From: Branchiostoma floridae
Taxonomy: Eukaryota > Chordata > Leptocardii > Amphioxiformes > Branchiostomatidae
Direction: 5' to 3'
Length of the DNA stretch: 64,000 nucleotides
Assembly: GCF_000003815.2 (NCBI RefSeq)
Contig: NC_049982.1
Location: 2,104,514-2,168,513, forward strand
Below the pieces are notes generated by a model. The model saw only the letters and a program-made list of their open reading frames with translations. It was not told where the DNA came from and did not search any database. This document shows positions 7,208 through 58,700 of this stretch, piece by piece (position 1 is the first letter of the stretch; each line of letters begins with the position of its first letter). The position numbers and the translations under genes are program-made.

Positions 7208-7407
7208 AAAAGCCCGCCATGTCGTCGATCGTGGAGTACTACCACGGGAAGACGGTCCTGGTGACCGGCGCGACCGGCTTCATGGGCAAGGTTCTGGTGG
7301 AGAAACTTCTCCGAGCCTGTCCTGACGTGGACACCTTATACCTGATGGTGCGACACAAGGCTGGGCAGACTCCAGCACAGAGGATCAACAGCATTGTGGA
7401 GGGAAAG
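7208..7407 (+). CDS. FAR1: fatty acyl-CoA reductase, first coding exon
   Basis: An acceptor (TTTGTGTTGACAG) ends at 7207 and ATG is at 7219. The 63 codons start [20 protein letters not shown] and end in NSIVEGK before donor GTGAGG at 7408. This is the Rossmann N-terminus of fatty acyl-CoA reductases: GATGFMGK is the NADPH-binding glycine motif (Gly17, Gly20, Gly23), and [11 protein letters not shown] matches the FAR1/FAR2 family block. The enzyme reduces fatty acyl-CoA to fatty alcohol at peroxisomes for ether-lipid and wax synthesis. The start matches the length of vertebrate FAR1. The 3' part of the exon is tandemly copied just downstream. Vertebrate FAR1 and FAR2 are both possible counterparts. 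Confidence 0.88.
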
Positions 7408-7412
7408 GTGAG

Positions 7413-7447
<35 letters not shown>

Positions 7448-7920
7448 GAAGCTTCTCCGAGCCTGTCCTGACGTGGACACCTTATACCTGATGGTGCGGC
7501 ACAAGGCTGGGCAGACTCCAGCACAGAGGATCAACAGCATTGTGGAGGGAAAGGTGAGGATTGATTGATTGACTGTTTGATTGATTGATTGATTGAGTGG
7601 AGAAGCTTCTCCGAGCCTGTCCTGACGTGGACACCTTATACCTGATGGTGCGACACAAGGCTGGGCAGACTCCAGCACAGAGGATCAACAGCATTGTGGA
7701 GGGGAAGGTGAGGATTGATTGATTGATTGGATTATTGATTGATTGAAAATTGATTGATTGGATGATTGGCTAATTGATTAGATAATTAATTGATTGGACA
7801 ATTGATTGATTGGATTCTTGATAGATTGATTGATTGGTTGGATGAGTGGAGAAACTTCTCTGAGCCTTTCCAAATGTAGAGACATTATACCTGATGGTGC
7901 TGCAGTACCAAGGTCACACA
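7408..7920 (+). repeat. tandem copies of the 3' part of FAR exon 1 with donor and (GATT)n
   Basis: The last 109 bases of FAR exon 1, its GTGAGG donor and an adjoining (ATTG)n run recur from 7445 and from 7599, nearly identical. A diverged, truncated fourth copy starts at 7848. Each copy has the donor but not the exon's acceptor, so none can be a normal exon. GATT-type microsatellite separates the copies and continues to about 7845. The unit is about 150 bp. Confidence 0.85.
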
Positions 7921-8051
7921 CCAGGGGGCCCAAAATCAGCCTTAACCTTTGTCTTTCCAATGCCTACCCACACACCAAATATCATTACTATTCATCCAAA
8001 GGTTCTAAGGTTATTCTGACCACAAATATCCGGAAACACATACGTACAATG

Positions 8052-8086
<35 letters not shown>

Positions 8087-8127
8087 GTCATACGAAAAAC
8101 TATACCTCCATTTTTCATGGAGGTAAG
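7907..8127. repeat. fragment of a dispersed repeat ending in CCTCCAT...ATGGAGG
   Basis: Text from about 7907 (GGGGGCCCAAAATC, CACACCAAATATCA) plus a (CA)n run and the terminal ACCTCCATTTTTCATGGAGG matches, in reverse, the element at 38386-39424. It is a short remnant in FAR intron 1. Confidence 0.55.
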
Positions 8128-8864
8128 TACTAGTAGTTGATGTCAGAGTTTGGGCTGTGTATATATATGTCTGCTGGTAGACTGTGGATCATACCTTATA
8201 TAAGTTATAATTTGCAGAACTTCCAATTTTTGTTGTTGTCAGAAATTACAGAAATCCCAGAATGACCAACGCAAATAAATCTGAGTTGGTTGATTGAATG
8301 ATGTCAGATGTCAATGATATACGGCATGGTGTAGGTCAAAGTAGGAACAATCAAATGTGCATTGATCAATGATTTAATTGGTTGTTTGAGGATTGATGAT
8401 GTCTAGGATCAGTTTGATTGCAGATAGTAACTTCAGTAAAGGTACGGTAAAACCAAATATAGATTGATTGATAATCTGATTGATTGGTTGATTGGTTGCT
8501 GATGTAATGGCATCAGTTGGATATGATAGTGGATAGCAAAGTAGGGAAATTATTCACATTGTAACAAAATGAGCCTGAACATATACATGTATCATATGAT
8601 TTCACGTTTGGGCAGCAAAAACATACAAACAAACATTAGGCTTATCGTGTCCCTTAAACTCATTAGACATCCATTGAAACAGCCTTCTTTTTAAAAAAAA
8701 AGAAGGAAAACATTTTGCTATTAGTTTGTTCCAACAGAAACATGTGCGTTTGTCAAACAAAAGTTCTTTTGAATTTATTTCCCTGATATTTTTCTCTCAT
8801 ATCAAAGTTATTTCCAAATATTCTTCACACAAATTCTAACATATCGCTATAATATTTCCCCCAG

Positions 8865-14836: not shown

Positions 14837-14924
14837 TGAAAATTCAATGGTGCTAATGGTGTCGTGTTTGAGATTTGAAATAAGTCACTAAGTATAGGTT
14901 TGACTTAAAGATAGGAGAAGGGAA

Positions 14925-18383: not shown

Positions 18384-18587
18384 TACGCAGCTGTAACAAA
18401 AGTGTGCAATGTGGAGAGATTGTAGCCAAATGTAGCCTAATTAGCGCAACAGATGATCTTTGAAAAGAAATTGTTACTTTGCCTATTAGATTTACGCAGT
18501 AAAGTTGAAGGAAGTTGACACTGGTCACGGTGCGTCATTGCGTTTTCTTTACCAGTGCGTAGCAATCTTAAGATGCATCCTGTAGCA

Positions 18588-28859: not shown

Positions 28860-29605
28860 AGAAGCGGTATTCAATATTCAATGATTCATTGTTAAAAAAG
28901 TCATTTTCGGCAAATTGTCCCTGAAGTTGAGAGCAACAATTATCTGCTATCACGTCTGTAGAAGGAATGTCCACTCAGTAGGGACGTTCGTGTTCACATA
29001 AAAAAGTCTTTGTCGTCGTCTTCTCTGGTGGGGTTATCACAGCTAGTTGAGCTAGTAATGGTAACACTTAGTTAAATACAGTAGATGCCGCTTAATTGCA
29101 CGGCCTATTTGCCAGTGAATTTCGTGCAATTATCCGACTGGTGCAATAATGCGAAGTTATCTAGATGGAAAGCACTGATCTGGGATTTTGGGATTCCATG
29201 CAGTTAACAGAAGTGTGCGGTTATCCGTTGTGCAATTAACTGGCTTCTACTGTTACGGTAGTAGAAGAGGTATTCAATATTCAATGATCTATTGTAAAAA
29301 AGTCATTTTCGGCAAATTGTCCCTGATGTTGAAAGCAACAATTATATTCTGTCACGACTGTAGAAGGGAAGTCCTCTCATTAGGCCCGTTCGTGTTCACG
29401 CCCGCTGATTCTGCAGCGATGTTGTCTCCCGTCCTGTCATTCTGCAATCAGAGACGACATTCGGCATGTAAATTATTTTCTGTCACGACTGTAGAAGGGA
29501 AGTCCTCTCAGTAGGCCCGTTCGTGTTCACGCCCGCTGATTCTACAGCGATGCTGTCTCCCGTCCTGTCACTCTGAAATCAGAGACGACATCCGGCATGT
29601 CAAAG
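28860..29605. repeat. local duplications, one interrupted by a pogo-type MITE
   Basis: A block with TTCAATATTCAATGAT, TCATTTTCGGCAAATTGTCC and GTAGAAGG occurs at 28868-29000 and again at 29268-29400. A 126-bp segment (TCACGACTGTAGAAGGGAAG ... GAGACGACAT) is tandemly doubled at about 29352-29600. Confidence 0.75.
29079..29252. mobile_element. pogo/Tigger-type MITE, second copy
   Basis: CAGTAGATGCCGCTTAATTG...CAATTAACTGGCTTCTACTG, with TA at the left edge and TT at the right. It is in the opposite orientation to the copy at 4862-5035 and shares the GTTATCTAGAT, GGGATTTTGGGATTCC and GTTAACAGAAGTGTGC internal blocks. Confidence 0.75.
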
Positions 29606-37700: not shown

Positions 37701-40700
37701 TAATTACGACTACCATGTAAAATTTAAAGTATTGTCACATGTACCTTACTGGAAAGGTAAATATAGTTACCTGTGCCTTGCAGTAAAATGAAATATGGTT
37801 ACCTGTGCCGTATAATTATGGTAAAATGAAATAGTTACCTGTGCCTTACAGTTAAGGGAAATATAGTTACCCGTGCCGTTGATCATGTTACATGTCCCAG
37901 TCTTGTTCCAGTAGTTCACTTCTCTGCCAACAGAAACCACAAAACAAAACGTTACTCTGAAAGCTACACAATGTCTCTTTGCTACATCATGTATCGTACA
38001 AAGCTAGCAAACATGTAGCGTGACATCATTCTAGTGACGTTGAAGAAGAGTGATGGGTGACACTCGTAACGTCAGGACGTAATGTCGGAATCTTATCGAG
38101 TTTTGGAGAATCATTATCTTTGTCTTTAGATATCCGTGCCGTGTCGTTAAGAAAGCCCTTGCTAAATACACGCTAGGTTAGTTGCTGTTAACACATGACA
38201 ATACATACAATCAAGCTCCCCCTGGGCAAAAGTCCTACCACGTGAGAATCCTACTGGGTGCATACGATTACCTCGAGCTTCATCTGCCCCGCAGAGAACC
38301 TAAACTAGCTACGTTGACAAGGCACAAATAGACTAGATGCCAGGTTATAATGCTATAGACGATGTAACCTTAGTTCACCATTATTACCTCCATGAAATGT
38401 CATGGAGGTTATATTTTACCCAGCGTTTGTGTGTCTGTCTGTCTGTCTGTCAACAAGATAACTCAAGAACGGCTTGATGGATTAGTTTCATATTTGGTGT
38501 GTTGGTGGGGTGTGACGAAAGCTAAAAGTGATTAGATTTTGGGCCCCCTAGCGACTTTTCTTGGTACTGCAGCGCCACTTCCGGTTTTGCTATCTCGTGT
38601 TCTGAACAAGATATGGTCCCAATTTTTGGGTGTTAGATAGCTCTTGTACTCAGGAATAACTGACATAAGTTTGGGCCCCCTAGCGTCTTGTTTTGGGATA
38701 GCAGGGGCATTTTTGTCAGAACCTTCTGAAGTGGATAACTCAAGAAGGAAACAATGGATTTTCATAATTTTTGGTGTGTAGGTACCTTAGACAATGTTAT
38801 ACAAGATAAAATACAAATTATGCAAAATTAGATTACATTTGCATAATTAATGAGCTTATTCTATCATAGCAGTTTTTTAATGTATCTCTTGTACCGGACA
38901 TGATATGGTTTTGATATTTGGGTGGTAGATAGCTTTCAACGTCATGGCAAAGTGGGGCAAGTTTCAGCCCCCTAACATTTAATTATGGAACTGCAGGGGT
39001 GTTTTTGTCAAGACACTCCAAAGAGGATAACTATAGAAAGGAATGATGGATTGCCATCATTTTTGGCTTGCAGGTAGCTTAGGCAAAGATGTTTATAATG
39101 ATATACATTTTATGCAAATGAGGACTTAATTTGCATAATTAATGAGGAAATTGTACAATTCCATTGTTTTCAATAGTTGAACTTAAGTAAATGTAACACA
39201 TGTAATCTATGATAGGTGAGAGATAAGCAGATACCAAATATGCAAATGAGGAACTGATTTGCATAATATATACAGAAATAGCAAATCCACATAATGACTA
39301 ATATTGGGAATTTCATAATTGTGACATGTGTACGTTAGTCAATAATGAACATCGCCATACATAAATTATGTAAATGGTAGTCATTTGCACGAAATTTACA
39401 AAAGCTCTAAATTTTCATGGAGGTATGAGGTCGCCGAACTCTAGTCTATGTATGAGAATATATGCAATATTGTTACAATACAGGGTATTTACAATATCTT
39501 GATTCTTGAATATCTTAAAAACAACAGATAAAGGTAACTGCAATGTTTTGGAATATTTTATAAACAACGGATATAGGTCACCCTGCGGATAAAGGAGAGC
39601 TAACGTCAGTGATGACGTACCTCATGCCGTTCCACCTGTCGATGTAGGTGTACTTGCGCGGATCGGCCTGCCCGGTGTAGATGGTGTACACGCCGTCGGA
39701 CGCGTTATACTGCCCGCCCATGATCTGGGTGAACATGTTGTTCAAAATACACGTTAGCAAGGAAGTTTGAAATAATTTTATTATGTAATATAATAAACAC
39801 TTAGCAGAGTTCTAGCAGGCTTTCATCTTTTGCGGTGCGGTTTCAGGAATTTTCACAATGGCTAAGGTTCTCAATTCGCCTGCTAGAACTCTGCGAAAGA
39901 GACTATTATTTGAACAAAGATTAAGTTGGAGGCTAAAAAAATATTGCATCGAGTCTTTGACCGCCCCACTGTAGTCCTCCTCACAATTCAAGAAACCAAA
40001 CACCCAGATCACGTGACCGTAAGGACATTTGACGTCAGCAGTTGATCACAAGTGCCAGGAATTCTATACCTTCCCCCGTATGGTACCCTTCCTAAATTCA
40101 TCACACTTGGAGTCCTGTTCAGTGCCCAGTACCTTGGCTTTCTCCAACTTTTGAAATAATGCTGGAACAAAGCTCTTCCACTGTTATGTGTGAACATTAA
40201 TTCTTCTTCTTCTTTATTGATATTCAACATAACATATGGTGGCAGCCTGAATGACGTTGTTATCCACCACCACAGATGAGTTTTTATGCTGAAACAAGTC
40301 ATAAAAGAAAAATCTTCAGAACTCACCCTGAAGATGCCGAACGTGTCGTCCTTGATGAGCTCGGGCGCGAACGTCTTGGCGAGCTTGAGGAGAGGCTCGT
40401 GGTACCCGGACAGCATCTCTCCTACCGTGTGGGTCACGAACAGGGACTCCCCCGTCAGCAGGAGCAGGAGGGACGCAAGGTCCTTAATCAGGTCCCGCTC
40501 GTTCTCTATCCACTCTGACAGCGTCTGAAAGGGGGGAGGCAATGATAAACATTCGCAACTTGCTACTGTGAGTATAAATGTCAACTGAATGTCAACTGAA
40601 GTCACAAAAAGAAACGATACGGACAGCAGGAGTACAAGGGACGTCAGGTCCCGCTCGTTCTCTATCCACTCGGACAGCGTCTAGAAGGGGGAGGTGGGCA

Positions 40701-43700
40701 GTAGGGGATATGTGTGATTTGTAACTTGCAACGGTGTGTGTAAAGCCGCGTTTAAAACAGTCATGAACAGGGAATCCCCGTTGGAAGGATCACCAGGGAC
40801 GCCAGTTCCCTAATCAGGTCCTGCTGGTTCTCTATCCACTTCGACAGCGTCTAGAATGGGAGGGGGGCAGTAGGGAACATAACTACATTGCTATAGCTGT
40901 GACAGAGACATAAGTACAGTGTGTAAAAAAATTGTGACAGAGACAGTCATAAACAGAGACGTCCCTGTCAGCAGGAGTACCAGGGACCCCAGGTACTTAA
41001 TCAGGTCCCGCTCGTTCTCTATCCACTCTGACAGCGTCTGAAAGGGGGGAGGCAATGATAAACATTCGCAACTTGCTACTGTGAGTATAAATGTCAACTG
41101 AATGTCAACGGAAGTCACGAAAAGAAACGATACGGACAGCAGGAGTACAAGGGACGTCAGGTCCCGCTCGTTCTCTATCCACTCGGACAGCGTCTGGAAG
41201 GGGGAGGTGGGCAGTAGGGGATATGTGTGATTTGTAACTTGCAACGGTGTGTGTAAAGCTGCGTTTAAAACAGTCATGAACAGGGAATCCCCGTTGGAAG
41301 GATCACCAGGGACGCCAGTTCCCTAATCAGGTCCTGCTGGTTCTCTATCCACTTCGACAGCGTCTAGAATGGGAGGGGGGCAGTAGGGAACATAACTACA
41401 TTGCTATAGCTGTGACAGAGACATAAGTACAGTGTGTAAAAAATTTGTGACAGAGACAGTCATAAACAGAGACGTCCCTGTCAGCAGGAGTAGCAGGGAC
41501 CCCAGGTACTTAATCATGTCCCGCTCGTTCTCTATCCACTTGGACAGTGTCTGGAATGGGTAGTGGACAGTAGGAAACGCCAAACATACATTGTTAAAAC
41601 TGAAATTAGCGATTTTCGTCAAAAGTTCCTGTCAACAAATGGTTGCCGTGGCAACACAAAAAAATTAAATTTTTTCTTTGTGAAATTGTTGCATTGTTGC
41701 CAACTAAATCTTAGGAAAACTTGCCAAATTTGGTGGCTCTAGCGTAAGCCGTTCTGGCGTTATTCGACACCAAAGTTGGAGCAGGCCTCAAAAGTTAACA
41801 CGGGAGTTCAGAAATAGCTCAAAATAAATCCGTCAGCTGATCATGATTCATATTCGCTACAATATTTCTAACTCCCTACGTTATGTGGGCGTGACAGAGT
41901 TGTACTGCAGTTTGTGTATAAATCGCTAGGTGGTTACCATGGCGGCGATGTTGATGCTGGTGAAGGTGTCGTTCAGCGTGCCTGCGGACATGCGCGGGAC
42001 GAAGCGGTAGGACTTCAGGTCCACGTAAGAAACCGTGTCGTTCCCGTGGAAGGTCACGTTCACCTTGTGCCTGACCTCACTGGAAACAATGACGTAACAA
42101 AGGTCATTAAGATGATGAAACAAGGATGTTGAATTCCATCAAACTGCAATACTTTGAAAATTCGCATTGCGTTCTGAAATTTAAAACCACAGTCCGTCGA
42201 CATGACTTCCCTAAACACCATATTTTCATAAACAATGGATATAGGTTACCCCGCGGATAAAGGTAAAGTAGCATTGCCGTTCGCGGCGCTCTTTTAGACT
42301 TATATCACATTATGAACTCCAAGTTTCTCTCTGATTCAAGTTTCCAGGCCGGGTTACTAATTATGTTTTCCCTGATAGCTAGGGAATATACATTTTTTTC
42401 TTCTATAAAATCAAGCAGATGTAAGGTGGCAACGTTGTTATTTTTTAAAATTTTAACAAGCCAAATGGTATTATATATTATAATTCTATTAGTGACCTGG
42501 TCCAAAAACCAAGTAAATGTAGGGCGAAAATGTTGCCTTTCTACTATATATTTCCTGAGGCTAACGTCACAATTCCAACCCGGGGCCCGGCATGGCTCTT
42601 AATGGAAACGAAAAATAGAAATGTGTACGCAAAAATACGCACAAATAATGTCCACGGCTATTCTCTTGACGCCTTGTGTATTTTGCTGTTTGTTATATCA
42701 TACTTTTCGTTCCTGAAAACTGCCCGGTCGGGCCCCGACTTGGAAATGTCACGAAAGGCTTACCTGTACGTGTAAGGCCCCTTTTCGAGAAAAGCCGGTT
42801 TCGCCCCGTTCAACACTTCGTCCTTGTTGAGCAGGTCGAAGAAGTAGAACTGTATGTAGATGGGGTAAGGGGGGTCCTTCCAGCGGCGGTACACAAACTC
42901 GCCATCCCGCAGAGCCATCAACTGAGAGGGAAAAGTTTGCTTGTTTGTTTGTTTGTTTATACGTTTCGTCAGTCAGCTCGAAGCTCAAAGCTGCTTTTTA
43001 TTGAGGCCATTTTCATAAGGGGAAATCATACAACAAAGATACATATATGCTTTATAGGTCACATTTCCAAACCGGAGCCCGACGGTGCAGCTTTCGGGAG
43101 CGAAAAGAATAAAATAAAATACATCAAAATACACAAATGTCGAAATAAGATTCATGGGCATGATTTGTGTATATTTCTAGGCATACATTTTAATTGTTCG
43201 TTTCTTAAAACATCCTGACCGGGCCCCGCTTTGCAAATATGACCTAAGCCTAAGCGAGCACGCTACCATAGAACTGTTGCAAAAGATGGAAAATACGAGA
43301 TTGAAAATTTGTATAACAGAAACAAGCAAATCAAGATAAAACAAAAACAAAAGTAAAGCGCAAAGGTTGGGCTACTTCATTAATGATAAATGTTAACGTT
43401 CTGGACGCCCCTTTGTGAAATTATCTATTCTTTCAAAACAGATCCTTTCAAACATGCTAATTGAGAGCCATAGGTGAAAAAAATAACATGTTTGAAACTT
43501 TCCCATTAGGAAAGCTTCTTTACAAATGGAAATGTTAATATTTACCTAGACAAACATGTCCCTCCCCGTACGCGAGTGGGCTAGTCCTAGGCGCCAAAGG
43601 TCACCCCGACACAGGGTCATCGTAAAACAGCTGATCGGCAAAACAATCATAACAGCTGTTTGGCCTAGTTAGGCAAAAATAGCCTCGATTGTTTACATCT

Positions 43701-46858: not shown

Positions 46859-49141
46859 CTGGGCGGGAAACAAACAAATTATATCAGCACATCTAGTTTT
46901 AGTACTTCAACAGTAAGTACAAAATGTTATAGTTAGTTACGATTCGCACCTGTAGGTGAATTTGACATTTACAGAATGTAGTAAGTTAGACCTTTTTTAC
47001 AGACGTGTCCCTGAGACGTGTCTCTAGGGTAGTCACTTCCGTGTAGATCTATCTTATGCTTGCTAACGTGATAAAATTCTGTTACCTCGTTGATCCAGAC
47101 GATAGGTAGCACAACTTCTCGAATCTTTTCCGTCTCTCTGCAGCAACAGGTCAGAAAATAAGAAGGTAAAAGTTACTTTAACAAAAATAAGGAATTTCAT
47201 GATGGAGCATATTTGCAAGAAACACAGAAATAAAATATACTCACGATCGGTAAAGCCCCTGTCACACATAACTGACCATGGTCTCCCAAACTCTCTAAAC
47301 CTTCCCAGACCATGGTCGGGAGCTGGTCGGGAGCAAGTACAAGGTTGTTGGTAGTGGGCAAGTGGTAGTGGCGTTGGTGGTTGGCAAGTTTGTCTAATTA
47401 TCTTTAAACATCCATCGACTCCAGGCTACTCCCGACCCAGTGTCGATCTTGGTCCGGAGCATAGTCGTGAAAATGTCCTAAATGTGTGACAGGGGCTGAA
47501 GATCCTCTCATGGCAGGGTGTTGTCATTCTCTCGAAGCTTCTACAGAAAATTATTTCTTACATCTTTCTGTCCTTTACCAACTGATATGACAACTAAGTT
47601 TTAGCAGTTGACACTTTAAACGATTTTAATTTGTCCTTACAGTCTATTAGTTTATATCTGATATTCCTGTTAATGGTACCCTTGTCGTGTTTGTAAATAT
47701 GTTTCAGGTCAATACTGCATATTTTGTTCTGAAGCAATTTAGCCATTTTGTCTGCCATGATTGAGACAGTGTTACTTGGTTTTCGAGTATATATCTCACC
47801 TCATATGTGGCACCGGGCTGACTATGACGTTGATCTGGGTTCTTCTGGCCGCCGCTAACGCCACGCCTGTGGTCTTTAAACAGGAGGAGAACACCAACGT
47901 TACTGAGTCAAAACGCGCATGGTTTTATATGATAAGCTGCATTTTTAAGACAAGAAAAGTTTAAGACACCCATTGTCATTATATAGAGGATTACGAATAA
48001 CGGAATCGTGTGTGAGACCAGCTGACCAATGTGGCCATCTTTTCTTTCATTAAAATTACTTTACAATGACCCAAGAAATTATTAGTGGTCTACTGTCTAC
48101 GAATTCCATTTCTTCGAGTCCCTTGTGCTAGTTATAGTTATCTAGTGACTTGTGTAATGTCTTTACTAGGGGCATGTTTCAATCTTACTAGCTGAAAGTT
48201 TATTTTTAGATGTAAGACAGTCATTTCTGATTATAACCCCGGAAGTAGTGTTTGTTCCTACCGGTTCGACGTCCAGGAAAATCTGATGCTCCATTTTGTT
48301 GGGATCGAGACCGGCCACGCCCCTGGACAGGCTCTCGTTCCCGAGGTAGAAGTGAGGTAAAGACAGGACGACCGGGGCGTCTGGTGAGAGAAATGTGAAT
48401 TTAAGAGAGGTTTTAACCAAAATTTAAAGAATACTTAAAGTTAAAGTCCTTCTAGTACCAAAGACAGAGAGAGAGAGAGAGACAGAGAGACAGAGAGAGA
48501 GAGAGACAGAGAGAGAGAGAGACAGAGAGAGAGACAGAGAGAGAGACACAGAGAGAGACACAGAGAGAGACAGACACAGAGAGAGAAAGAGTGTTTATGT
48601 GTATATATATGTGTGTGCATGCATCCGTACGTGTGTGCATGTGTGTTTGTGTGTATGTGTGTGCATGCATCCGTGTGTGTGTGTGTGTGTGTGCATGTGT
48701 GTGTGCGCGCATGTGTGTGTGTGCATGTGTGTGTGCGCGCATGTGTGTGTGTGCATGTGTGTGTGCGCGCATGTGTGTGTGTGCATGTGTGTGTGCATGT
48801 GTGTGTGTGTGCGTGTGTGTGTGTGTGTGCATGTGTCTGTGTGCATGTGTGTGCGTGTGCACCTACCTAAATGGCAGTTCCAAACGTCTATGAGCCCGTC
48901 CTGTAGGCACGTGTCCCCGCAGTAGCAGACCGTCTCACCCCGGCCGTGTGTGTGTGTGCGTGTGTGTGTGTGTATGTGTGTGTGTGTGTATGGTGTGTGC
49001 GTGCGTGTGTGTGTGTGCTCGTGTGTGTGTGTGTATGTGTGAGTGTGCATGTGTGTGTGTTTGTGTGTGTGTGTACGTGTATGTGTGAGTGTGCATGTGT
49101 GTGTGTTTGTGTGTGTGTGTACGTGTATGTGTGAGTGTGCA

Positions 49142-49172
<31 letters not shown>

Positions 49173-49206
49173 GTACGTGTGTGTGTGTGTATGTGTGAGT
49201 GTGTCA

Positions 49207-49250
<44 letters not shown>

Positions 49251-52200
49251 ATGCATGTATGTGCGTGTGCACCTACCTAAGTGGCAGTTCCTAACGTCTA
49301 TGAGCCCGTCCTGCAGGCACGTGTCCCAGCAGTAGCAGTCTGAAACTCCCCGGCCGTGTGTGTGTGTGTGCATTTGTGTGTGTGTATGTGTGTGTGCATG
49401 TGTGCGTGTGTGTGTGTGCGCGCGCATGTGTCTGTGTGCATGTGTGTGTGTGCGGGCGTGTGCACCTACCTAAATGGCAGTTCCTGACGTCTATGAGTCC
49501 GTCCGGTAGACACGTGTCCCCGCAATAGCAGGCTGTGTCTCCCCGGCCGTTCCGCAGCTCCTCCCGCGGCAGAATGTACCGGTACACGGGCACAGCGCCA
49601 ACATACCGGGGGCCTTCGTACGTTAGGTACGCGGATCTGTGGGAAATCAGAAAACATCAAGTGTAATAGGCCAAAATCAAATCATTAATGGTGGTAAAAT
49701 ACGTGGAAGCTGGACCGGTTCATAGCTTTAGATGCTACATCGCTCTCGTGAGGACGGATGGTAATTTAGCGTGTGGTTTGCTGCGTGTGCGTTGGGGAGA
49801 AGGTACAATGAATTTGCCATTTTCCAAAAATGAGAGTCTTCAAGCAATGAAAAGTAATAGTGGCATACATTCAGCTATATGTAAACCACCACATTAAAAG
49901 GTGGCTTAGCTGAATGTGTGCCGCTGTCACTTTTACTATATGAAAGATGGTACTTAAATTAAGGCATGCCCTTAGCTTTAGACGTGGCGTGCCTGGAGTT
50001 CATAAAATTTGATGTAATTATACATAAACAGATTACAATGTTTGTGTTACGTTACCTTTGTGTATATATCACGCCCTGTACTTAACCCTAGTCCCAGTTT
50101 AGCCAGTGGGTATATATGTACAAAAAGGTCTTTATTTAGCATATAGTTTGCCTTCAAAACATACCTGCACAAGTCAGAGACAAAGATGTACAGCGGCTTG
50201 TCTATGTCCTCTATTGGTGGGAACATGATTCCCTCTGGAGGTAGAACACATAACATAAAGAAAACAAATACTTAGGTAAATGGTAATGATTGTATGTTGT
50301 AAGTTGGAGAAAGCTGCAGAGATAGAGACCGCTGTAAGAAAAGTTTAATTTGAAATTAAAAAATTATTATCTCAGATAAGCAGTTGAAGCCTTTTACAGC
50401 ATAGAGGAATTTACTTCGGTCATGTGGCGTTACGAACACGCGATTCAATTAACAGATCAAGTTTCCCAGAAAGTTGTATCGTCAGGAATAGATAAAAGTC
50501 CGAATGTATTTCTACATCTAAACGCTGCACAACCAAACATCGTGTAATTACAATTTCCTTCTGAGTTAATACTAACTCCAACTGATGCTATGGTCCCAAA
50601 TGCACCGGTGACGTATGCCCGATAGGGCTCTGTAGCCACAAATATGTCGGATAAGGGGATACCCCGAGCTCCCGATGTTTTCACGGGTAGGCCGCGGCTT
50701 CTGTTTTTTGCCGGGTGCCAGGTTGATTTTAACTGCAAGTTGAAAAATTCAGGGACCCGGGCGTGCCCCAAAATAGCCCTGTAGCCAACGGGCGTCCCAC
50801 GGGACCACGTAGGCGTCACGCCTGAAAGAGCATAAAACCAGACCATAGACTACCCGGATGGGCCTTTTTTTCCAAATGGGACCATAGCATAGCGTAGATG
50901 AGCTGACTGCGACGTGCGAGCAAAACTGTGTATTGTAGTATGAGAGTACGTAGAGGTTAAATATATATGTATGTATGTATGTACCTGTGCCGTTTACTCT
51001 GCCGCAGGGTCGCTTCCAGTACGGTAAATGGCTGTGGAAAAAACAGAAAACATTAGACTTTTTTCTGAATAACATTAAGGGAGTAGACTTCAGACAGAGA
51101 TATACGCCACAGGTAAACAGTACTCATTTCGAAACCACATAAAATTTGAAGACGTACAAAATAAATCGACATTATAAACATTAATCACCATGTACAAAAA
51201 TGTGATTTTGCTAATGTCGAATTTAATATCAATAGCTAATGAAGAAAGGTGGAGCTGCTTGCAAATTGGGTAACGCTATTGTGTAGTAGCTGCCCAAGTC
51301 TTACTACCTGTCCAATGTTCTTACGAGAAATTGAAGGAGTAAATCGATCGTTTTGTAATTCAACAGTGTGCTTACGTCATGCCGTTCCATTGATAGATAT
51401 AGGCGAACTTCTCCGGGTCCGTTAGTCCTGTGAACACCGTGTACACACCGTCTGTGGAGTTCGTCTTTTGCTGCCGAGAGAAAACTATTGTTACGCACTT
51501 TATTTCTTTATTTGTCTAATTTCATTTCAATACGATAGCCCCTTCAATGTGATAAAAAGTTGATTTTTAAAACGACACAGTATATACAGAAACGAGACAT
51601 CTTACATTCAGTCAAGAGACAACATCATTTCCTATCTAGTACATTTATCAGTTTTCTTTCCCTCACATTCAGGAACAGCCGCGAACTTGACGCGTCCCTC
51701 ACGAGCGCCGTAGCGAACCCCCAGGTCCGACTTGTAAATTCAACCCGGGACCCTGCCAGGCCCAAAAATAGCCTGGGAACCATAAGGTGTCCCACGGGAC
51801 CACATAAGTGTCGCTTCCTAGCTAGGCATATCAGTTTGTGAATGACATTCAGGAAGAGCCCTATCTTATCGTCCCTGACTAGCGCCGGAGCGAACCTCCA
51901 GGTCCGACTAATGATATTCAACCCGGTACCCGGCCGGGCCCAAAAAATAGCCCGGAGGCCATATAAGGTGTCCCACGGAACCACGTAAGTCCTAGCTAGT
52001 TATATCAGTTTGTGAACTACTTCACTCACATTCAGGAAGAGCCCGAACTTGTCGTCCCTGACGAGCGCGGGAGCGAACCTCTGCGCGGCGGCCAGCAGCG
52101 GCTCGGGGTACCCCCAGATGAGCCCGGAGACGGACCGGCGGAAGAACAGCGGCTCGCCGGCCAGCAGGAGACCCAGGGCCGCCGCGTCCCGGATCACGGC

Positions 52201-54615
52201 CCGCTGCGTCTTCAGCCACCACGAGATCGTCTGGAGGGAGAAGATGAGGAAACAATTGTCGTTGTTTTTTGTTCTTGTTGTAGTTGAATAGAAATATAAA
52301 TACAGGGTGGTTGGTCCATAACCCAGAAGTTCTGTATACTATAGAACCCTGAGTATGACCAGTGGAAACTACAATAACGGGATGGTTTCCCGTGCCTCAC
52401 CATGGCGGGGATGTTGAGGGTTGTGATCGTGTCGTTCTCCCTCCCGACCGACATGTGCGGCACAAACTCGTACCGCTTCATGTTCACGTACGACACCGTG
52501 TCGTCATCGTTAAACTGGAGCTGCGTCTTGTTTCTCAGCTCCCTACAGACAACAAATAAACAAAAACACCACAGTCACATTGTTTCATGTTCATAAAAAA
52601 GAGACAAACAAAAACACTTTTTATCAATCTTTTTTTAAAATCCTCTCTTTTGAAACAAAAGAAGAACCCCCCCCCCCCGACATTTACGTTAGAATACACG
52701 TGATGTTAATAATCCCGTCCCCGATATGTTACGACTGCCCTCCTCCGGAAGACACCCTCTAACTTGTGAATAGCCTCTAGCCTCCTCTAATGCTGCAGTA
52801 ACGGTATCGTTTGCATTGGTGCCCGGCCGGGATCCGAACCTTGGGAGTGTGCGTCTCGGTGTTTTTACGGGTAGGTCACGGCGTCTATTTATTCAGGGAC
52901 CCGGTCGTGCCCAAAAATAGCCTAGTAGCCGCAGGGTGTACCACAGGGCCACGTAAGAGTCACGTCCGAAAGTGCCAAGAAAACAGTCCGCAAACTATTC
53001 GGAGGTGCCTTTTCCGAATCGAATCGAACAGTAGCTGTAGTATATTGTAGCGAAATTCTAGTCGCAATCCCCCATCTAACCTGTAGTGCTGTGTAAACTA
53101 CTAGTCACACCTGTAAGTGTACGGCCCCCGCTGTTCCACCGCCGGTTTCCCTCCCTTCAGCACTTCCTCAACGTTGAGGATGTCGAACAGGTAGAACTGC
53201 ATGTAGATGGGGATGGGGATGTCCTTCCAGAAGCTGAAAATGAACGATCCCTCCTGGAGTACCATCATCTATGAGGAAGGGGGATGGAGATAAGTTAGAA
53301 ATGAATGGTCTAGAAGCTGAAAATGAACGATCCCTCCTGGAGTACCATCATCTATGAGGAAGGAGGATGGAGAGAAGTTTGAAATGAATGGTCCCTTATG
53401 TTCACTAAGTTGACAATTATATCTGCAGAGGGGGAGGTAAAATTAACGGTTATGAATATACTGTAAATGTATTTAAGTTCGCGGGGATTTGATTTCGCGG
53501 TAGCGGAAAAATTGAGTTTTCGCGGCGGTTTTAAGTTCGCGGTAGCACCATGCGCTGTAATCTCTTACTGCCATGGAAAAATGTTCGCGGTGGTTTTAAG
53601 TTCGCGGTGAAGTGGCCGCCGTGGAAACCGCGAACATGAAACCACAGCGAAAGTTTCTGCATTTACAGTATGTAGCCATTACACGTAGAAATGGGATGAA
53701 GAGTAGTTGAAAATGAACGATCATACAAGGGGCAATCAAGTGGGGCAATAGAATGGAGAAAGTTCAGCTAAATATTATGATCTCCTACCTTATTGAGTAA
53801 AGGGTTTCTATAACTCAAAGAAAGATCCCAAGCCAACTTATAACGTTTCGATAGATTGTCTGTGACCTTCTTCGATTTAATTAAGTACTGCAGCTAGGCG
53901 TCGCTACTGCAGACTGAGGTTCCAAACGTATTTTGTATTCTGTACCATGTATGTAAAATTGTGTACATAAACTTCTGAGACTCACTAGGTATCTCCGTTA
54001 CATACATTGTCTGACCATTGCATCTTCCCTCATGACCTCAATGAAAAGCGGCCTGCAGGTCGATTTGAGCTTTCATGAAAAAACAAAGGTTCAAACAAAC
54101 GTGACTCAGTCGTTTTGCACCTCCCCTTTTCGTTGTTTTGGATAAAGTTGACCCGTAATTTTGTAATTTGTATACCCCTATAAGACGTAGGCAACCTATT
54201 TTGATTCCCCACAATTCGTGGTGAGGGGACCAAATTTTGGGTAGCTGCTTTTCTTTATTTTAGGTAACGGTGTCTTTTGAATTCATTTTTTCTTTCTTTC
54301 GAATTTACCAAATCATCCTACATGATGTGATAATGATAATAAACGATTGTGATGCCGGTAGCCTACAAACGAGGCGACCGTCCTTGAGTGATAACACTCC
54401 AAAGTCCAAAGTAATAATTAAACTCATAAACATGGTTGTCTGTAGAAAACTCAAAAACAAATTCAGACTTTACAAAGTTAACCATACTGTAACACTGAGT
54501 CACTTACCTTCGTTACAAACGTATACAGAAGTGTGTTATACAGGCACAGCCCCAGCGTTCCCAGCACAAGGCACGTCACACCGACAGCCGCCGCACAGCG
54601 GACCGAGCGCGCCAT
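46709..54615 (-). CDS. CD36/SCARB-family scavenger receptor B, 12 exons, 461 codons found
   Basis: Exons in coding order: 54508-54615, 53111-53268, 52401-52542, 52030-52230, 51376-51470, 50985-51031, 50165-50234, 49470-49636, 48262-48380, 47800-47873, 47086-47137, 46709-46858. Phases at all junctions are the same as in gene A, and six exons (2, 3, 7, 9, 10, 11) have identical lengths, so the two are tandem duplicates. N-terminal helix ([16 protein letters not shown]), ectodomain with the six conserved cysteines, and C-terminal helix ([20 protein letters not shown]) before CRRR. Only Cys7 of the N-terminal cysteine pair is kept. After CGG a donor GTAAAC follows and no nearby stop suits, so a short last exon is expected but not found; it may be in the gap at 46075. 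A TATA box lies about 105 bp upstream of the ATG. Confidence 0.88.
47086..47137 (-). CDS. CD36-B exon 11
   Basis: [17 protein letters not shown], followed by donor GTAACA. Confidence 0.85.
47254..47497. mobile_element. MITE with AGCCCCTGTCACACAT ends in CD36-B intron 10
   Basis: The exact complement ATGTGTGACAGGGGCT closes at 47497. Internal CCATGGTC and GGTCGGGAG motifs are palindromic. Related by its GTCACA core to the other Harbinger-like MITEs. Confidence 0.78.
47800..47873 (-). CDS. CD36-B exon 10
   Basis: [24 protein letters not shown](R). Phase 0 to 2. Confidence 0.88.
48262..48380 (-). CDS. CD36-B exon 9
   Basis: [20 protein letters not shown] ... [17 protein letters not shown]. 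Donor GTAGGA. Confidence 0.9.
48465..48595. repeat. (GA)n / (GACA)n microsatellite
   Basis: Almost pure GAGAGACAGAGAGA over about 130 bp in CD36-B intron 8. Confidence 0.95.
48596..49469 (-). repeat. (GT)n tract containing two copies of the CD36-B exon 8 3' end with donor
   Basis: GCACCTACCTAA(A/G)TGGCAGTTCC, TATGAGCCCGTCCTG(T/C)AGGC, ACGTGTCCC(C/A)GCAGTAGCAG and CCCCGGCCG occur at 48860-48948 and 49269-49358. They match real exon 8 at 49459-49550. Each copy has exon end, donor and then (GT)n. Long GT/CA tracts with GTGCAT interruptions fill the rest and give meaningless His/Thr or Val/Cys frames. Confidence 0.9.
49470..49636 (-). CDS. CD36-B exon 8
   Basis: [20 protein letters not shown] ... 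[23 protein letters not shown]. Four conserved cysteines. Donor GTAGGTGCAC leads straight into a (CA)n tract (minus strand). Confidence 0.88.
49859..49925. repeat. imperfect stem-loop resembling a small-RNA precursor
   Basis: AGTGGCATACATTCAGCTA pairs with TAGCTGAATGTGTGCCGCT with two mismatches. A bulge follows, then CCACC/GGTGG closes a short loop. About 67 nt, in CD36-B intron 7. It could equally be a small MITE. Confidence 0.5.
50165..50234 (-). CDS. CD36-B exon 7
   Basis: [22 protein letters not shown](R). Donor GTATGT. Confidence 0.86.
50640..50850. repeat. dispersed GC-rich repeat (CAGGGACCCGG...CCCAAAATAGCC)
   Basis: CAGGGACCCGGGCGTGCCCC, AAAATAGCCCTGTAGCC, CCCACGGGACCACGTAGGCG. Related copies lie at 51735-51830, 51908-52005 and 52815-52995, all within CD36-B introns. 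The middle two form part of the exon 4 tandem unit. Confidence 0.65.
50985..51031 (-). CDS. CD36-B exon 6
   Basis: [15 protein letters not shown]: conserved cysteine and glycosylation site in a 47-bp exon, two codons shorter than in gene A. Confidence 0.83.
51376..51470 (-). CDS. CD36-B exon 5
   Basis: [31 protein letters not shown](T). Donor GTAAGC, phase 2. Confidence 0.88.
51655..52029 (-). repeat. two tandem copies of the CD36-B exon 4 3' end with donor
   Basis: ACATTCAGGAA(C/G)AGCC...GTCCCTGAC(T)AGCGCCG(T/G)AGCGAACC at about 51666-51722 and 51846-51905 repeat the real exon end at 52029-52085, at about 180-bp spacing. Translated: [18 protein letters not shown] in the nearer copy and a more decayed [14 protein letters not shown] in the farther one. 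The unit includes the dispersed CCCGGGTCCC repeat. Confidence 0.85.
52030..52230 (-). CDS. CD36-B exon 4
   Basis: [20 protein letters not shown] ... [20 protein letters not shown] ... DDKFGLFLN. Donor GTGAGT. Its 3' end is copied twice downstream. Confidence 0.9.
52401..52542 (-). CDS. CD36-B exon 3
   Basis: [20 protein letters not shown] ... [25 protein letters not shown]. Close to vertebrate CD36 and SCARB blocks. Confidence 0.9.
53111..53268 (-). CDS. CD36-B exon 2
   Basis: [20 protein letters not shown] ... [20 protein letters not shown] ... RGPYTY(R). Its first bases and acceptor are duplicated at 53314-53367. Confidence 0.9.
53269..53395 (-). repeat. tandem copy of the CD36-B exon 2 acceptor junction (83-bp unit)
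   Basis: AAGCTGAAAATGAACGATCC, CTCCTGGAGTACCATCATCT, ATGAGGAAGG and GGATGGAGA occur at 53231 and again at 53314. The copy includes acceptor CCTCATAG and the first 38 bases of exon 2. Confidence 0.88.
53459..53670. mobile_element. MITE-like element TACTGTAAATG...CATTTACAGTA with TTCGCGG motifs
   Basis: Terminal TACTGTAAATG(T/C)A is inverted at 53658-53670. The interior repeats AAGTTCGCGG(T/G) in both orientations. It lies in CD36-B intron 1. Confidence 0.8.
54508..54615 (-). CDS. CD36-B exon 1
   Basis: [20 protein letters not shown] ... [11 protein letters not shown], an uncleaved signal anchor. Donor GTAAGT, phase 0. Confidence 0.87.
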
Positions 54616-54716
54616 TGGTCAACACTGCAACCGGACACCCCGCTACCATCTTGTGTTCACAACTTGGGTTGTTCCATTTGTACTTTTCGTAAGGGTCTGA
54701 TTATGTTAACCGAGGG

Positions 54717-54723
54717 ATTTATA
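54717..54723 (-). promoter_or_regulatory. TATA box of CD36-B
   Basis: The minus strand reads ACCTATAAATCCCTCGG, with TATAAAT about 105 bp upstream of the ATG at 54615. Spacing allows a transcription start about 75 bp before the ATG. Confidence 0.5.
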
Positions 54724-54779
54724 GGTATACGGATATGAAACCGCTGATAACAAAATACAACTTCGTGTCCTTTCTAAGT

Positions 54780-55140
54780 CCTTACATATTCCGTATCTGC
54801 GTTAATATGTAAATATAACGACTTGAATAATGTAGATGATAAAAGTCACAACCAATAATGGACCGTCCCGCAGACAGAATTAGATAACTAAAGGTCGGTG
54901 TAATTTTCGTCTGGACGGTCCCCTGAAGTTTGTACCGGGTGACCTTCGTGGGCAGGTGGGCGTATTTGTATGTGATATACTTACTGGGACTCTGGGACTT
55001 ACAACATATTAAGGTAGTCCAATAGTCCAACACATGACTACCAGCGGACAAGCCCCCTGTGGTAGTGGGCTGCCATAAATGTGTGGCCCAAGGGCTACAA
55101 AAATGGAGATGGGCGCCATCCACCTTAAGCATCTGTTACA
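54780..55140. other. spacer between CD36-B and the Cys-rich gene
   Basis: Contains a repeat-like block (GGATGGCGCCCATCTCC..., GGCAGCCCACTACCACAGGG on the minus strand). The long minus-strand frame here has no family features. Nothing is recognised from 55140 to 55567. Confidence 0.35.
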
Positions 55141-55567
55141 GATGCACATGCGACTTAAACTTTACTAGTATTTTACCAACAACCCCCCACCACTAAAGTT
55201 TGCCTACTAGATTCAAGAGGTTTTTTTGAAGTCAGGATATTAGAACACGAACATTACCCGCAGTTCCCTTGATTTGACTGATGAAATTATGTGATTCTTT
55301 AATACTGACTGTTGAAACTGTGAGTTGTAAAAATGAGAAACGCGACAAAAATTGAATCATTTTTGCTTATTTTACTCAAAGACATTTCGTACAAATTAAA
55401 CGTCCGGTAGAATTCGATGTTCGCAAAGAGGTCAAGGTGGACTTGATTGATTATAAGCGTTGTTGTCATGGCCACAGACGTCGCTGAGTTGCCATGGTAA
55501 CGTGGTTTTTATCCGTCGATCTTGTCATCGTGGCAGACGTTACTGGGTCACCATGGTAACCTGGTGT

Positions 55568-55756
55568 TTACCCGTCGATGTAGTCATAGTGACAGACGCC
55601 GTACCCCAGCGCACCGGACATGACGCAGCGGCCCACGCCCCAGCAGAACCCGTCCAGGTCACAGGGCATTTCCGGTTCGCACACGCGCAGAGCAGGCTTG
55701 CAGATCTCCTCCGGGGAGCCGCAGGTGTACTGGTAATTACCCAGGTCTGTACAGCG
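55568..55756 (-). CDS. Cys-rich gene exon 3 (terminal)
   Basis: 62 codons plus TAA. Acceptor CCTGTTGTCTCCAG. Eight cysteines. Its first 30 bases and acceptor recur upstream about 12 times. Confidence 0.8.
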   Translation of the reverse strand, partial: RCTDLGNYQYTCGSPEEICKPALRVCEPEMPCDLDGFCWGVGRCVMSGALGYGVCHYDYIDG

Positions 55757-58700
55757 CTGGAGACAACAGGTAAATAAACAAATAAACAAACAAATAAACA
55801 CAGGTGTACTCGTGGTTACCCAGGTCTGTACAGCGCTGGGGACAACAGGTAAATCAACAAATAAACAAGCAAATAAACACAAGTGTACCAGTGGTTACCC
55901 AGGTCAGTTCAGCGCTGGGAACAACAGGTAAATAAACAAATAAACAAGCAAATAAACACAGGTGTGCCAGTGGTTACCCAGGTCAGTTCAGCGCTGGGGA
56001 CAACAGGTAAATAAACAAATAAACAAGCAAATAAACACAGGTGTACCAGTGGTTACCCAGGTCTGTACAGCGCTGGGGATAACAGGTAAACAAACAAATA
56101 AACAAACAAATAAACACAGGTGTACTCGTAGTTACCCAGGTCTGTACAGCGCTGGGGATAACAGGTAGATAAACAAATAAACAAACAAATAAACACAGGT
56201 GTACCAGTGGTTACCCAGGTCTGTACAGCGCTGGGGATAACAGGTAAACAAACAAACAAATAAACACAGGTGTACTCGTAGTTCCCCAGGTCTGTACAGC
56301 GCTGGGGATAACAGGTAAACAACCAAATAAACAAACAAATAAACACAGATGTACTCGTAGTTACCCAGGTCTGTACAGCGCTGGGGATAACAGGTAGATA
56401 AACAAATAAACAAACAAATAAACACAGGTGTACTGGTGGTTACCCAGGTCTGTACAGCGCTGGGGACAACAGGTAAACAAACCAATAAACAAGCAAATAA
56501 AAACAGGTGTACTCGTGGTTCCCCAGGTCTGTACAGCGCTGGAGACAACAGGTAAACAAACAAATAAACAAGCAAATAAACACAGGTGTACTCGTGGTTA
56601 CTGCCAAGTCAGTGCAGCGCTGGGTAAAACAGGTAAGCAAACAACTAAACAAATCTAACAAGACAGAAAGACTGTGGTGATGGTAGTTACGAAAGTCCGT
56701 ATTGCGCTAGGGAAAAGAAAACGACCACGCAACCAGCCAGCCAACCAACCAATCTACCAACCAACCAAACAAACACACACGCACAAACAAACAACACGTA
56801 TTGTGACTGCAGCACTTTCGGTCCCCGTGCTCATGAGAGTAAAATGTCTATCTTCCAGCAGATCTTTCGTGGACAAGGCAGTATCCAAAGGTTAGCCTGT
56901 ATCCACCGGTCAACGGAGGGCTTGATGGATAATGGTCTAAGCGCTTTAGATCATACGTAACGGCCTTGCACCCGATAGATCGTTTCGTTTTATTAGATCT
57001 GCTTGGAGAGTATGAAATGTTTGTTTGTTTGTTTGTTTGTTTGTTTGTTTAGATCTCCATTTGAATGTAAGACCACCAACCTTGAAGAGCGGGTAGCAGA
57101 TCCGCTGGTACCAGCATGACTCGTCCGCGGTGCAGTGGGAGTCGTCCGTACAAGACGTGTACTGCAGGGCGTACAAACACATAACACCATCTACATCTGT
57201 AGTACTATTATACTTTACCATGACATGAATTAGAAATTAGACTATTGTTTTGTACTGCAGGGTGGGGATGGGCACGTGAAGGGGATAATAAAACATGGCA
57301 ATTGGAGATAGTGGACCTTTTTACCACAACGGTTTGTGACAAGATCAAGTACACATTCGGATGGGCACATGAAGGGGGTAGTAAAACATGACAATTGGAG
57401 ATAGTGGACCTTTTTACCACAACGGTTTATGACAAGATCATGATCAAGTACACACACAAAGATTGTCGCTGGCAGACACGACAAGAACAATCCTTTACTC
57501 TTGTACCGGTTGGGGTGCAGCAAGATAAGAGCTTGGATCCCCAACAAGTTTGGCAGATTTGTGGCTGATTTATGTATTCAAGGAAATCTTAAAATTCGTA
57601 ACGGCAGAATAGCCGGTGATCTACAAGAGGTAGCTTCTCTCAAGTTATATGTTAGCTCTATGTATATGTCCTGACTTGTTGTGACCTGTACTTAGCTCGG
57701 TTGGGCAAATTGTGCAATAAAGGTCTTCAGTCATTCATTCAATAAGCCTTTTATGGCATGGTCTACTGTAGCTGAACAGTATCCATTTATAAATTTAGGG
57801 TGGTGTTGATTGCAAACGGCGCAGTTGTAGGGAAGATGATAGCAGATGGGAAGATGATAGCATAATAAATATTAGTCACAACAGTAATGTAGAATGAACT
57901 GCAGGGTGTGCAAACACATAACGTCATCTACGTAACTATGTAGTATATGCTGTCTAAACATATAACTACATGTACCTACATGTAGTATGTGTACTACCAA
58001 ACTTTCCCATGAAATTGATTAAAATTAGATATCTATAAAGTTTTAGTTACACGTTCTTGGCCGAGGCTAGTTGATACATGAAGTAGTGTAGATCAGTATA
58101 CAGACAGTTCAAATATGATACCAGTCATCTTATAATTTGGCAGTTTGTAGCCCAATGTTGTTGTCCATATGTTAGTGTGACAAGGGACCATATTTTACCA
58201 CATGTATCAAGTAATGTCAGTCAAAGTTGCTCATCATAGTAAACTGTGATATTGCCATTTTTTATTCTTCCCTTAAAGATTCAATGGTAACACAGACAGC
58301 TAACACTTTTTGCCTTGCCGCCAGGCAAGGCTTTACGCCAGCTTTTTTCCATGGATCAATGGACGGACCTTTTAACCCAGCCCTTCCAAAGCCCCTTCCA
58401 AAGGCCCTTCCAAATCGCCTTTCTCATGGACAAGTTTGACGGCTCAGGCAGACAATGGTACATCCCTGTTGAATTTTAAACCGTCCATTTTACGTATTTG
58501 TTTCTGTTTGCGGTCGGTTCTAAAAGCATTTAATATTTGGTTACATTGAATAAATGAAGCGTTTGTATGGTAAAATTCCAAATTCATTTGGAGTGACATA
58601 AAATCAAGTGCATTATCTCGCAACAAGAATTGCATTAGCTATTCATAAAGATGAAACAATTTCCAAATCAGGCTAATAAATTGTATGTGAATATATAAGT

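What the first reader, a model, noticed from the sequence alone, without database searches (positions are those of the whole stretch)
7290..57161. Eight exons in one window carry tandem copies of their own exon-intron junction
FAR exon 1 (donor side), CD36-A exon 4 (acceptor), exon 8 (acceptor) and exon 12 (donor), CD36-B exon 2 (acceptor), exon 4 (donor) and exon 8 (donor), and Cys-rich exon 3 (acceptor) are each followed or preceded by tandem units containing the splice site plus adjoining coding bases. Units range from 40 to about 400 bp and 2 to about 37 copies. Every array lies on the intron side and is contiguous with the true exon. Random minisatellites would not centre on splice junctions in four unrelated genes. 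From memory, exon-boundary minisatellites were reported in an amphioxus Adh gene; I cannot verify the reference, and clustering at this density is not something I know to be described. A mechanism tied to exon edges (R-loops, slippage at polypyrimidine or GT tracts) is speculation.
Basis: partly seen in the sequence, partly recalled or inferred. Interest (0 to 1): 0.9.

Follow-up and report, generated by a model that had tools for sequence, protein, structure and literature searches.

The report
Amphioxus exon-edge tandem repeats ("mirages")
In this amphioxus window the edges of ten exons, splice site included, have been copied in tandem into the neighbouring intron, a type of repeat already known in amphioxus as a "mirage"; here it is unusually dense and sits at exon edges more often than chance placement of the repeat units would give.

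Summary
All eight junction arrays exist, and two were missed: CD36-A exon 6 donor and terminal exon 13. The window lies on contig C4 of a 513 Mb assembly, very probably Branchiostoma floridae. Such arrays are known as "mirages" (Adh3, globins, PGBD5, troponin C), so the kind is not new.

New here is a test. Of 14 arrays in the gene spans, 10 have units spanning a splice junction (expected 2.3 by unit length, 2.7 GC-matched). By whole-array length the excess is weak (6.2 expected, p=0.02), and per base there is none. In 139 kb of flanking DNA outside the window, 17 of 37 arrays end inside a predicted coding segment that continues outside (5.0 expected, p=1e-4); ten of 16 such segments tested match Pfam, eight above its cut-off. 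The feature is not uniform: none at 30 CCT-chaperonin matches elsewhere in the genome.

B. belcheri and B. lanceolatum protein models repeat some of the same exon edges. The copies look largely neutral, though changes in them lean to synonymous ones. "Always on the intron side" follows from how a junction duplication works and is not evidence. Why junctions are favoured (birth, persistence or a regional effect) remains open.

The parts
7219..7407 (+). FAR (fatty acyl-CoA reductase) exon 1 coding part
   Evidence: matches P0125 (B. floridae FAR, C3ZKB0)
7297..7746 (+). FAR exon 1 donor mirage, 3 copies of 146/154 bp, each with donor AAG|GTGAGG and a GATT microsatellite
7846..7900 (+). decayed fourth FAR exon 1 piece, 85% identical
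29340..29603 (-). CD36-A terminal exon 13 duplicated whole with its acceptor (131 bp x 2); not in the finding
   Evidence: C-terminus of P0001
31447..31632 (-). CD36-A exon 12 donor mirage, 2 copies, 89 bp spacing
   Evidence: the donor is supported because P0001 continues into exon 13
34564..36098 (-). CD36-A exon 8 acceptor mirage, 40 bp unit (34 intronic + 6 exonic), 37 fuzzy matches, in two blocks 34564-35787 and 35917-36098
36095..36167 (-). longer copy of the exon 8 start (88%); shorter piece at 36690-36718 and a donor-end copy at 37006-37034
37763..37879 (-). CD36-A exon 6 donor mirage, 4 copies, spacing 32-36 bp; not in the finding
40433..41602 (-). CD36-A exon 4 acceptor mirage, 7 copies (156-187 bp spacing) with a 513 bp higher-order repeat
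48860..49550 (-). CD36-B exon 8 donor mirage, 3 copies (spacing 193 and 410 bp) separated by GT-rich microsatellites
   Evidence: added by hand to the array list because microsatellite masking hid it
51665..52081 (-). CD36-B exon 4 donor mirage, 3 copies, 180-183 bp
53226..53393 (-). CD36-B exon 2 acceptor mirage, 2 copies of 83 bp
55722..56716 (-). Cys-rich gene exon 3 acceptor mirage, 79 bp unit, 13 fuzzy matches
57895..57931 (-). single dispersed copy of the Cys-rich exon 2 acceptor (86%), about 0.7 kb from the exon

Best explanation
These are amphioxus mirages: segments of about 30-200 bp that span an exon-intron junction were duplicated in tandem, and the extra copies, each with its own GT or AG, became intron. 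Arrays then grew, shrank and were partly homogenised (inferred: replication slippage or unequal exchange). They are tolerated because the spliceosome uses the copy contiguous with the exon: the most upstream donor or the most downstream acceptor, as exon definition predicts. Most copies are neutral passengers. Shown here: the anatomy, retained splice dinucleotides, an excess at junctions by unit-placement tests, its replication in flanking DNA, and protein models of other Branchiostoma species that repeat some of the same exon edges. Inferred: the duplication mechanism, the exon-definition account, neutrality. Unknown: whether the excess comes from more births at junctions, longer persistence there, or a regional property.
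For: Anatomy and copy numbers. All 76 sites in the ten arrays, that is the ten true junctions and 66 extra copies, keep GT or AG (the search was centred on the junction, and for exon 6 only the 4 in-array matches of 9 were counted). Unit-placement excess; it stays when two or four junction arrays are dropped (p=1.3e-4 and 2e-3). Flank replicate: 17 of 37 arrays with one end in a continuing coding segment, none with both, expected 4.98, p=1e-4; without the FAR loci 16 of 34, p=5e-5; 10 of 16 tested segments match Pfam, 8 above the curated cut-off. Outside the window FAR has acceptor mirages at exons 3 and 5 and a spaced acceptor copy at exon 7. Single-copy use: P0001 (CD36-A) and P0122 (CD36-B from exon 3 on) carry each edge once, but these are predicted models. 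Using a distal copy mostly breaks the frame or meets stops: of 26 distal copies in eight arrays (exon 6 and exon 8 of CD36-A not tested) only the nearest CD36-A exon 4 copy (156 bp, in frame) and the second exon 13 (131 bp) read without a stop. Literature: Adh3 data and globin RT-PCR suggest that mirages do not disturb regular splicing (PMC3087553, passages).
Against: No transcripts were available, so the copy actually spliced is inferred from protein models. The exon parts of the copies are not plainly neutral: copy-specific changes are synonymous in 26 of 60 cases against 0.25-0.29 expected (p 0.001-0.014), which could mean repeated copying from the exon or some selection. No base-level enrichment, only a weak excess by array length, and no mirage at 30 CCT matches.
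Confidence: 0.8

Rival explanations
1. Ordinary random minisatellites: the region is array-rich and junctions are dense, so arrays overlap junctions without any preference.
For: Arrays span 24-27% of gene-span positions but only 8 or 9 of 55 junctions in the same test; by whole-array length 6.15 of 14 are expected (p=0.023), and dropping two or four of the junction arrays removes significance on that measure (p=0.12 and 0.36). Array density is 0.41 per kb in the window, 0.27 in the flanks, 0.04 around CCT matches.
Against: Each unit itself contains the junction, so the founding unit is the right thing to place at random: 2.3-2.7 expected, 10 seen. The flank replicate is significant and no array there has both ends in coding sequence.
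Confidence: 0.15
2. The copies are functional: alternative exons or splice-regulatory decoys kept by selection.
For: All 76 in-array sites (66 extra copies) keep the splice dinucleotide; if a random column pair were drawn in each array, all ten would be fully conserved with probability about 1e-3 (product). Synonymous-leaning differences. The duplicated exon 13 and the nearest exon 4 copy are open. Some B. lanceolatum and B. belcheri models include copies as coding.
Against: The combined test printed in the same call gives p=0.85. Of 26 distal sites tested 24 meet stops. One CD36-B exon 4 copy keeps GT but has a degraded donor (score -3.7). A B. lanceolatum model of CD36-A, P0007, lacks the copies that P0004 and P0006 include. 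Some synonymous bias is expected anyway because the true exon evolves under constraint. Stop codons occur inside the exon part of copies (2 in the Cys-rich array).
Confidence: 0.1
3. Assembly artefact: one junction region was assembled several times.
For: The assembly has N gaps, and FAR is split with inverted, 98-99.9% identical stretches nearby; the 98% identical FAR exon 1 copies and the 60 of 60 identical FAR exon 3 copies could have been assembled wrongly.
Against: Of 26 copies compared, 23 differ from the true exon by 5-32% in the exon part. B. belcheri and B. lanceolatum models repeat some of the same edges. Resequencing argued against assembly error for PGBD5 repeats of this kind (PMC3902484, passages).
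Confidence: 0.05
4. A refinement of the best explanation, not exclusive with it: persistence rather than birth. An exon under constraint acts as a permanent template that keeps refreshing the copies by conversion, so junction arrays outlive purely intronic ones.
For: Synonymous bias also between copies (array-averaged pN/pS 0.40, five arrays). Exon parts are closer to the true copy than intron parts in 7 of 10 arrays. Some of the same exon edges are repeated in other species.
Against: Array identity does not differ clearly between junction and other arrays (flanks median 85 vs 78.5, p=0.24; window 88 vs 83.5, p=0.39). The exon versus intron difference is also expected without conversion.
Confidence: 0.3

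Closest known systems
Mirages: Adh3 minisatellites of amphioxus (Canestro et al. 2002; paper not held, known here only through passages quoting it in PMC3087553 and PMC3902484)
   Same: Tandem units spanning an exon-intron boundary, extra copies in the intron, reported in both B. floridae and B. lanceolatum
   Different: Adh3 units are quoted as 10-72 bp; here 32 to about 190 bp (one spacing of 410), at ten junctions in four genes of one window. Somatic instability was reported for Adh3 and could not be tested here
Amphioxus globin mirages BflGb6 and BflGb9 (PMC3087553, passages)
   Same: Both boundary sides, units of 150-160 bp, 81-100% identity in BflGb6, splice signals in many but not all copies
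   Different: Reported gene by gene; no test of enrichment at junctions in the passages read
PGBD5 and troponin C repeats (PMC3902484, passages)
   Same: 60 and 108 bp tandem repeats abutting or overlapping splice sites in PGBD5; a gene model annotates copies as an exon
   Different: Single genes
VCBP3 intronic partial exons (PMC2632668, passages)
   Same: Complete or partial exons in introns, some with canonical splice sites, highly identical to adjacent coding exons
   Different: Not called mirages there; tandem-repeat density at that locus was like the genome's
Internal tandem repeats at exon-intron boundaries of human paralogs (PMC2812944, passages)
   Different: Human segmental duplications; mostly changes of coding sequence

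Membership tests
amphioxus mirage | tandem unit spans an exon-intron boundary | tested here: met
   10 arrays
amphioxus mirage | copies carry AG/GT splice signals (many, not all, in the literature) | tested here: met
   76 of 76 in-array sites, 66 of them extra copies
amphioxus mirage | host is a cephalochordate | tested here: met
   CD36-B model 100% identical to B. floridae P0033, whose recorded contig length 34244393 equals that of C4
amphioxus mirage | regular splicing is not disturbed | tested here: inconclusive
   P0001 and P0122 carry single copies, but they are predicted models; no RNA available
amphioxus mirage | copy number varies between alleles or somatically | not testable with these tools
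   no second allele of these arrays and no reads at hand
ordinary intronic minisatellite | placement independent of splice junctions | tested here: not met
   unit-placement tests; but the base-level test shows no excess and the array-length test a weak one
tandem duplicated (mutually exclusive) exons | whole exon duplicated with both splice sites | tested here: not met
   nine arrays duplicate only one edge; exon 13 is duplicated whole but is terminal

The most novel reading that the evidence does not exclude
In amphioxus, splice junctions are hotspots for short tandem duplication over at least a 224 kb region. The duplications arise or are maintained by a process tied to exon edges, recur or persist at the same junctions across species, and supply raw material for new introns and alternative terminal exons such as the doubled exon 13 of CD36-A.
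Probability: 0.3. Interest if true: 0.75.

Novelty: new member of a known kind. Interest (0 to 1): 0.5.

Why it matters
If junctions really are favoured, amphioxus offers a natural experiment for two old questions: how the spliceosome picks one of many nearly identical splice sites, and how new introns arise from tandem duplication, the model proposed for amphioxus globins in PMC3087553 (passages). It also has a practical side: mirages appear to corrupt gene models. P0002 and P0004 carry repeated exon edges, and the B. floridae CD36-B model P0033 stops inside exon 8, the exon that carries a donor mirage.

Tried and rejected
Base-coverage test of arrays over junctions: no enrichment. Microsatellite seeding at donors: 3-6 of 28 over four settings, p 0.04-0.22; acceptors 1-3 of 27, p 0.36-0.84. 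Age gradient along arrays or age difference of junction arrays: none clear. Protein self-BLAST for internal repeats returned nothing for all 16 amphioxus proteins, probably because contained alignments are dropped (my inference); replaced by a direct diagonal scan. Aldehyde dehydrogenase matches were located but their DNA could not be fetched. Pfam was not run on the four window gene models: one search failed on one reference and I did not repeat it.

Rows dropped, merged or added before the array count: the 35917-36098 block was merged with the exon 8 array; 55463-55598 was left out because it starts outside the gene span (it touches the last 31 bases of the Cys-rich exon 3; counting it as a non-junction array gives 10 of 15); CD36-B exon 8 was added by hand (without it 9 of 13). 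Arrays outside the gene spans (8 rows) were not counted. In one search, 30 of 99 coding segments lying inside arrays were dropped. In one search only the best 30 of 60 CCT matches had DNA. In one search the non-amphioxus set was what the capped listings gave (best 120 of 517, 10 of 10 and best 120 of 190 hits; 244 proteins in all).

Literature searches that showed no paper testing enrichment of such arrays at junctions: (listings with titles and starts of abstracts; passages read only in PMC3087553, PMC3902484, PMC2632668 and PMC2812944).
Full report
What was checked. The window is amphioxus DNA on contig C4 (34,244,393 bases) of a 513 Mb assembly, positions 2104514-2168513. A B. floridae protein model, P0033, is 100% identical to my CD36-B model over its 315 residues and is recorded on a contig of exactly that length, so the species is very probably Branchiostoma floridae. 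I built gene models by hand: CD36-A (12 exons, then a 13th), CD36-B (12 exons), a Cys-rich gene (3 exons) and FAR exons 1-2. Edges were chosen by reading frame and GT/AG, so the 28 of 28 GT donors and 27 of 27 AG acceptors hold partly by construction. CD36-A is 98% identical over its full length to P0001, a lysosome membrane protein 2-like model, and sequence search finds solved LIMP-2 and CD36 structures. The Cys-rich model has no outside support.

The arrays. All eight junction arrays of the finding are there. A uniform self-alignment rule also shows the CD36-A exon 6 donor array, and the C-terminus of P0001 led to a duplicated terminal exon 13. The ten arrays split evenly: five on donors (FAR 1; CD36-A 6 and 12; CD36-B 4 and 8) and five on acceptors (CD36-A 4, 8 and 13; CD36-B 2; Cys-rich 3). 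The exon lengths of CD36-A and CD36-B show largely shared intron positions, yet no junction carries an array in both genes, so these arrays probably arose separately (inference). Further pieces lie deeper in the introns: a longer exon 8 copy at 36095-36167, an exon 8 donor-end copy at 37006-37034, a decayed FAR copy at 7846-7900 and a stray Cys-rich exon 2 acceptor at 57895-57931.

Is it more than chance? It depends on what is placed at random. Per base, no: 24-27% of gene-span positions are array-spanned, against 8 or 9 of 55 junctions. By whole array length the excess is weak: 10 of 14 against 6.15, p=0.023, and not significant when two or four of the junction arrays are dropped. By unit length it is strong: 2.32 expected, none of 200,000 simulations reached 10, and p=1.3e-4 and 2e-3 with two or four junction arrays dropped; with GC matching 2.72 expected, p=8e-6. 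I hold the unit test to be the right one, because every unit carries the junction, so the founding unit did too. These numbers are exploratory: the window came to notice for this very feature, the list has 14 entries, one was added by hand, and unit lengths were read by eye.

Replication outside the window. In 139 kb of non-N flanking sequence I predicted coding segments by codon use trained on the window's exons and applied the same array rule. Seventeen of 37 arrays have one end inside a coding segment that continues outside, none has both; circular shifts give 4.98 (sd 2.1), p=1e-4; leaving out the FAR loci, 16 of 34 against 4.57, p=5e-5. These arrays touch 17 segments; 16 were tested in Pfam and ten matched: otopetrin, glycogen synthase twice, FAR, glutamate-receptor-type domains twice, BTB, YhhN twice and phosphatidylserine synthase. 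The otopetrin and PSS matches lie below Pfam's own cut-off, and the FAR exon was known to me beforehand. The later exons of FAR lie there too, with acceptor mirages at exons 3 (60 of 60 bases identical) and 5 and a spaced 83% acceptor copy at exon 7. By the array rule 2 of 3 arrays in FAR exons 3-10 span a junction against 0.35 expected, p=0.036; the exon 7 copy does not meet the rule.

Limits of generality. DNA was returned for the best 30 of 60 CCT-chaperonin matches, with 1.5 kb on each side, from twelve places in the genome. None has an array across a predicted edge, and only four arrays were found in 97 kb. Against the flanks that is 0 of 30 versus 17 of 69, p=0.001. The comparison is rough: exons are defined differently in the two sets, three CCT matches gave no acceptor and several predicted edges score poorly, and a few matches lie in long open frames that may have no introns. 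The scarcity of arrays does not depend on those edges. So mirages are common here and were not seen there; a regional, gene-class or intron-length effect is open. The globin positive control did not complete.

Other species. I scanned the 244 fetched proteins of the CD36 and FAR families for internal repeats: 6 of 16 Branchiostoma models have them and 1 of 228 others (p=2e-7, or 2e-5 after collapsing to 4 of 12 species-gene groups). The repeated pieces in CD36 are exon edges as defined by the window's models: the CD36-A exon 8 start in B. belcheri (P0002, P0003), the CD36-A exon 4 start in B. lanceolatum (P0004, P0006) and, weakly, the CD36-B exon 2 end in B. lanceolatum (P0008). In B. lanceolatum FAR (P0126) one repeated piece is the start of FAR exon 5; the edge of the other was not checked. 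Three of these junctions also carry mirages in B. floridae (CD36-A exons 4 and 8, FAR exon 5), which suggests long persistence or recurrence. Annotation has apparently taken intronic copies for exons; the B. floridae CD36-B model stops inside exon 8, the exon with the donor mirage.

What the copies do. All 76 in-array sites, ten true and 66 extra, keep GT or AG. A column-pair product makes this mildly unusual (about 1e-3) while the combined test in the same call gives 0.85, so I call it inconclusive. Differences between copies and exons lean to synonymous sites (pN/pS 0.40; between copies 0.40; 26 of 60 copy-specific changes). Constraint on the true exon explains part of this, repeated copying from the exon may explain the rest, and selection on copies is not excluded. 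Of 26 distal copies tested, 24 meet stops if used; the exceptions are the nearest exon 4 copy and the second exon 13. The simplest account is that the exon-contiguous site wins by exon definition (established knowledge, not tested here) and the remaining copies are passengers.

Comparison with what is known. PMC3087553 (passages) describes the same structures in globins, names them mirages after the Adh3 work, cites two further loci (retinol dehydrogenase and presenilin papers), and proposes them as a source of new introns. PMC3902484 (passages) adds PGBD5 and troponin C. PMC2632668 (passages) reports partial exons in VCBP3 introns. The 2002 Adh3 paper itself was not held. By anatomy and host the window's arrays are mirages.

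Verdict. Real, correctly observed, and a known kind.

Noticed in passing
window 7219-9040 and C4:2197179-2212344: FAR is split: exons 1-2 lie in the window on +, exons 3 onward about 99 kb away on the opposite strand, with window 3479-6646 and 12800-13597 repeated inverted at 99.2% and 99.9%. An assembly inversion or an inverted duplication.
   Followed up: partly
29340-29603: CD36-A has two complete terminal exons 13, each with acceptor, coding end and stop; they could be alternative C-termini.
   Followed up: partly
22973-23435 and 23817-24935: A single-exon gene that reads like a GPCR (open frame 21858-23621; family not tested) carries a 51 bp coding minisatellite in its tail, and after the stop a second array of related 45 bp units.
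   Followed up: no
34223-34395: An AATG microsatellite begins four bases inside the intron at the CD36-A exon 8 donor; FAR exon 1 and CD36-B exon 8 also have microsatellites at the donor, but overall no clear excess.
   Followed up: yes
11946-13195: AT-rich array of about 84 bp units; part of it recurs near FAR exon 3 on C4 within an inverted 99.9% identical stretch.
   Followed up: no
24-243 and 1130-1361: Dispersed repeats with many 83-88% matches across the genome; 24-243 also matches its own reverse strand.
   Followed up: no
38389-39445: A 1 kb element with two adjacent 86% copies just beyond the window, C4:2169714-2171819.
   Followed up: no
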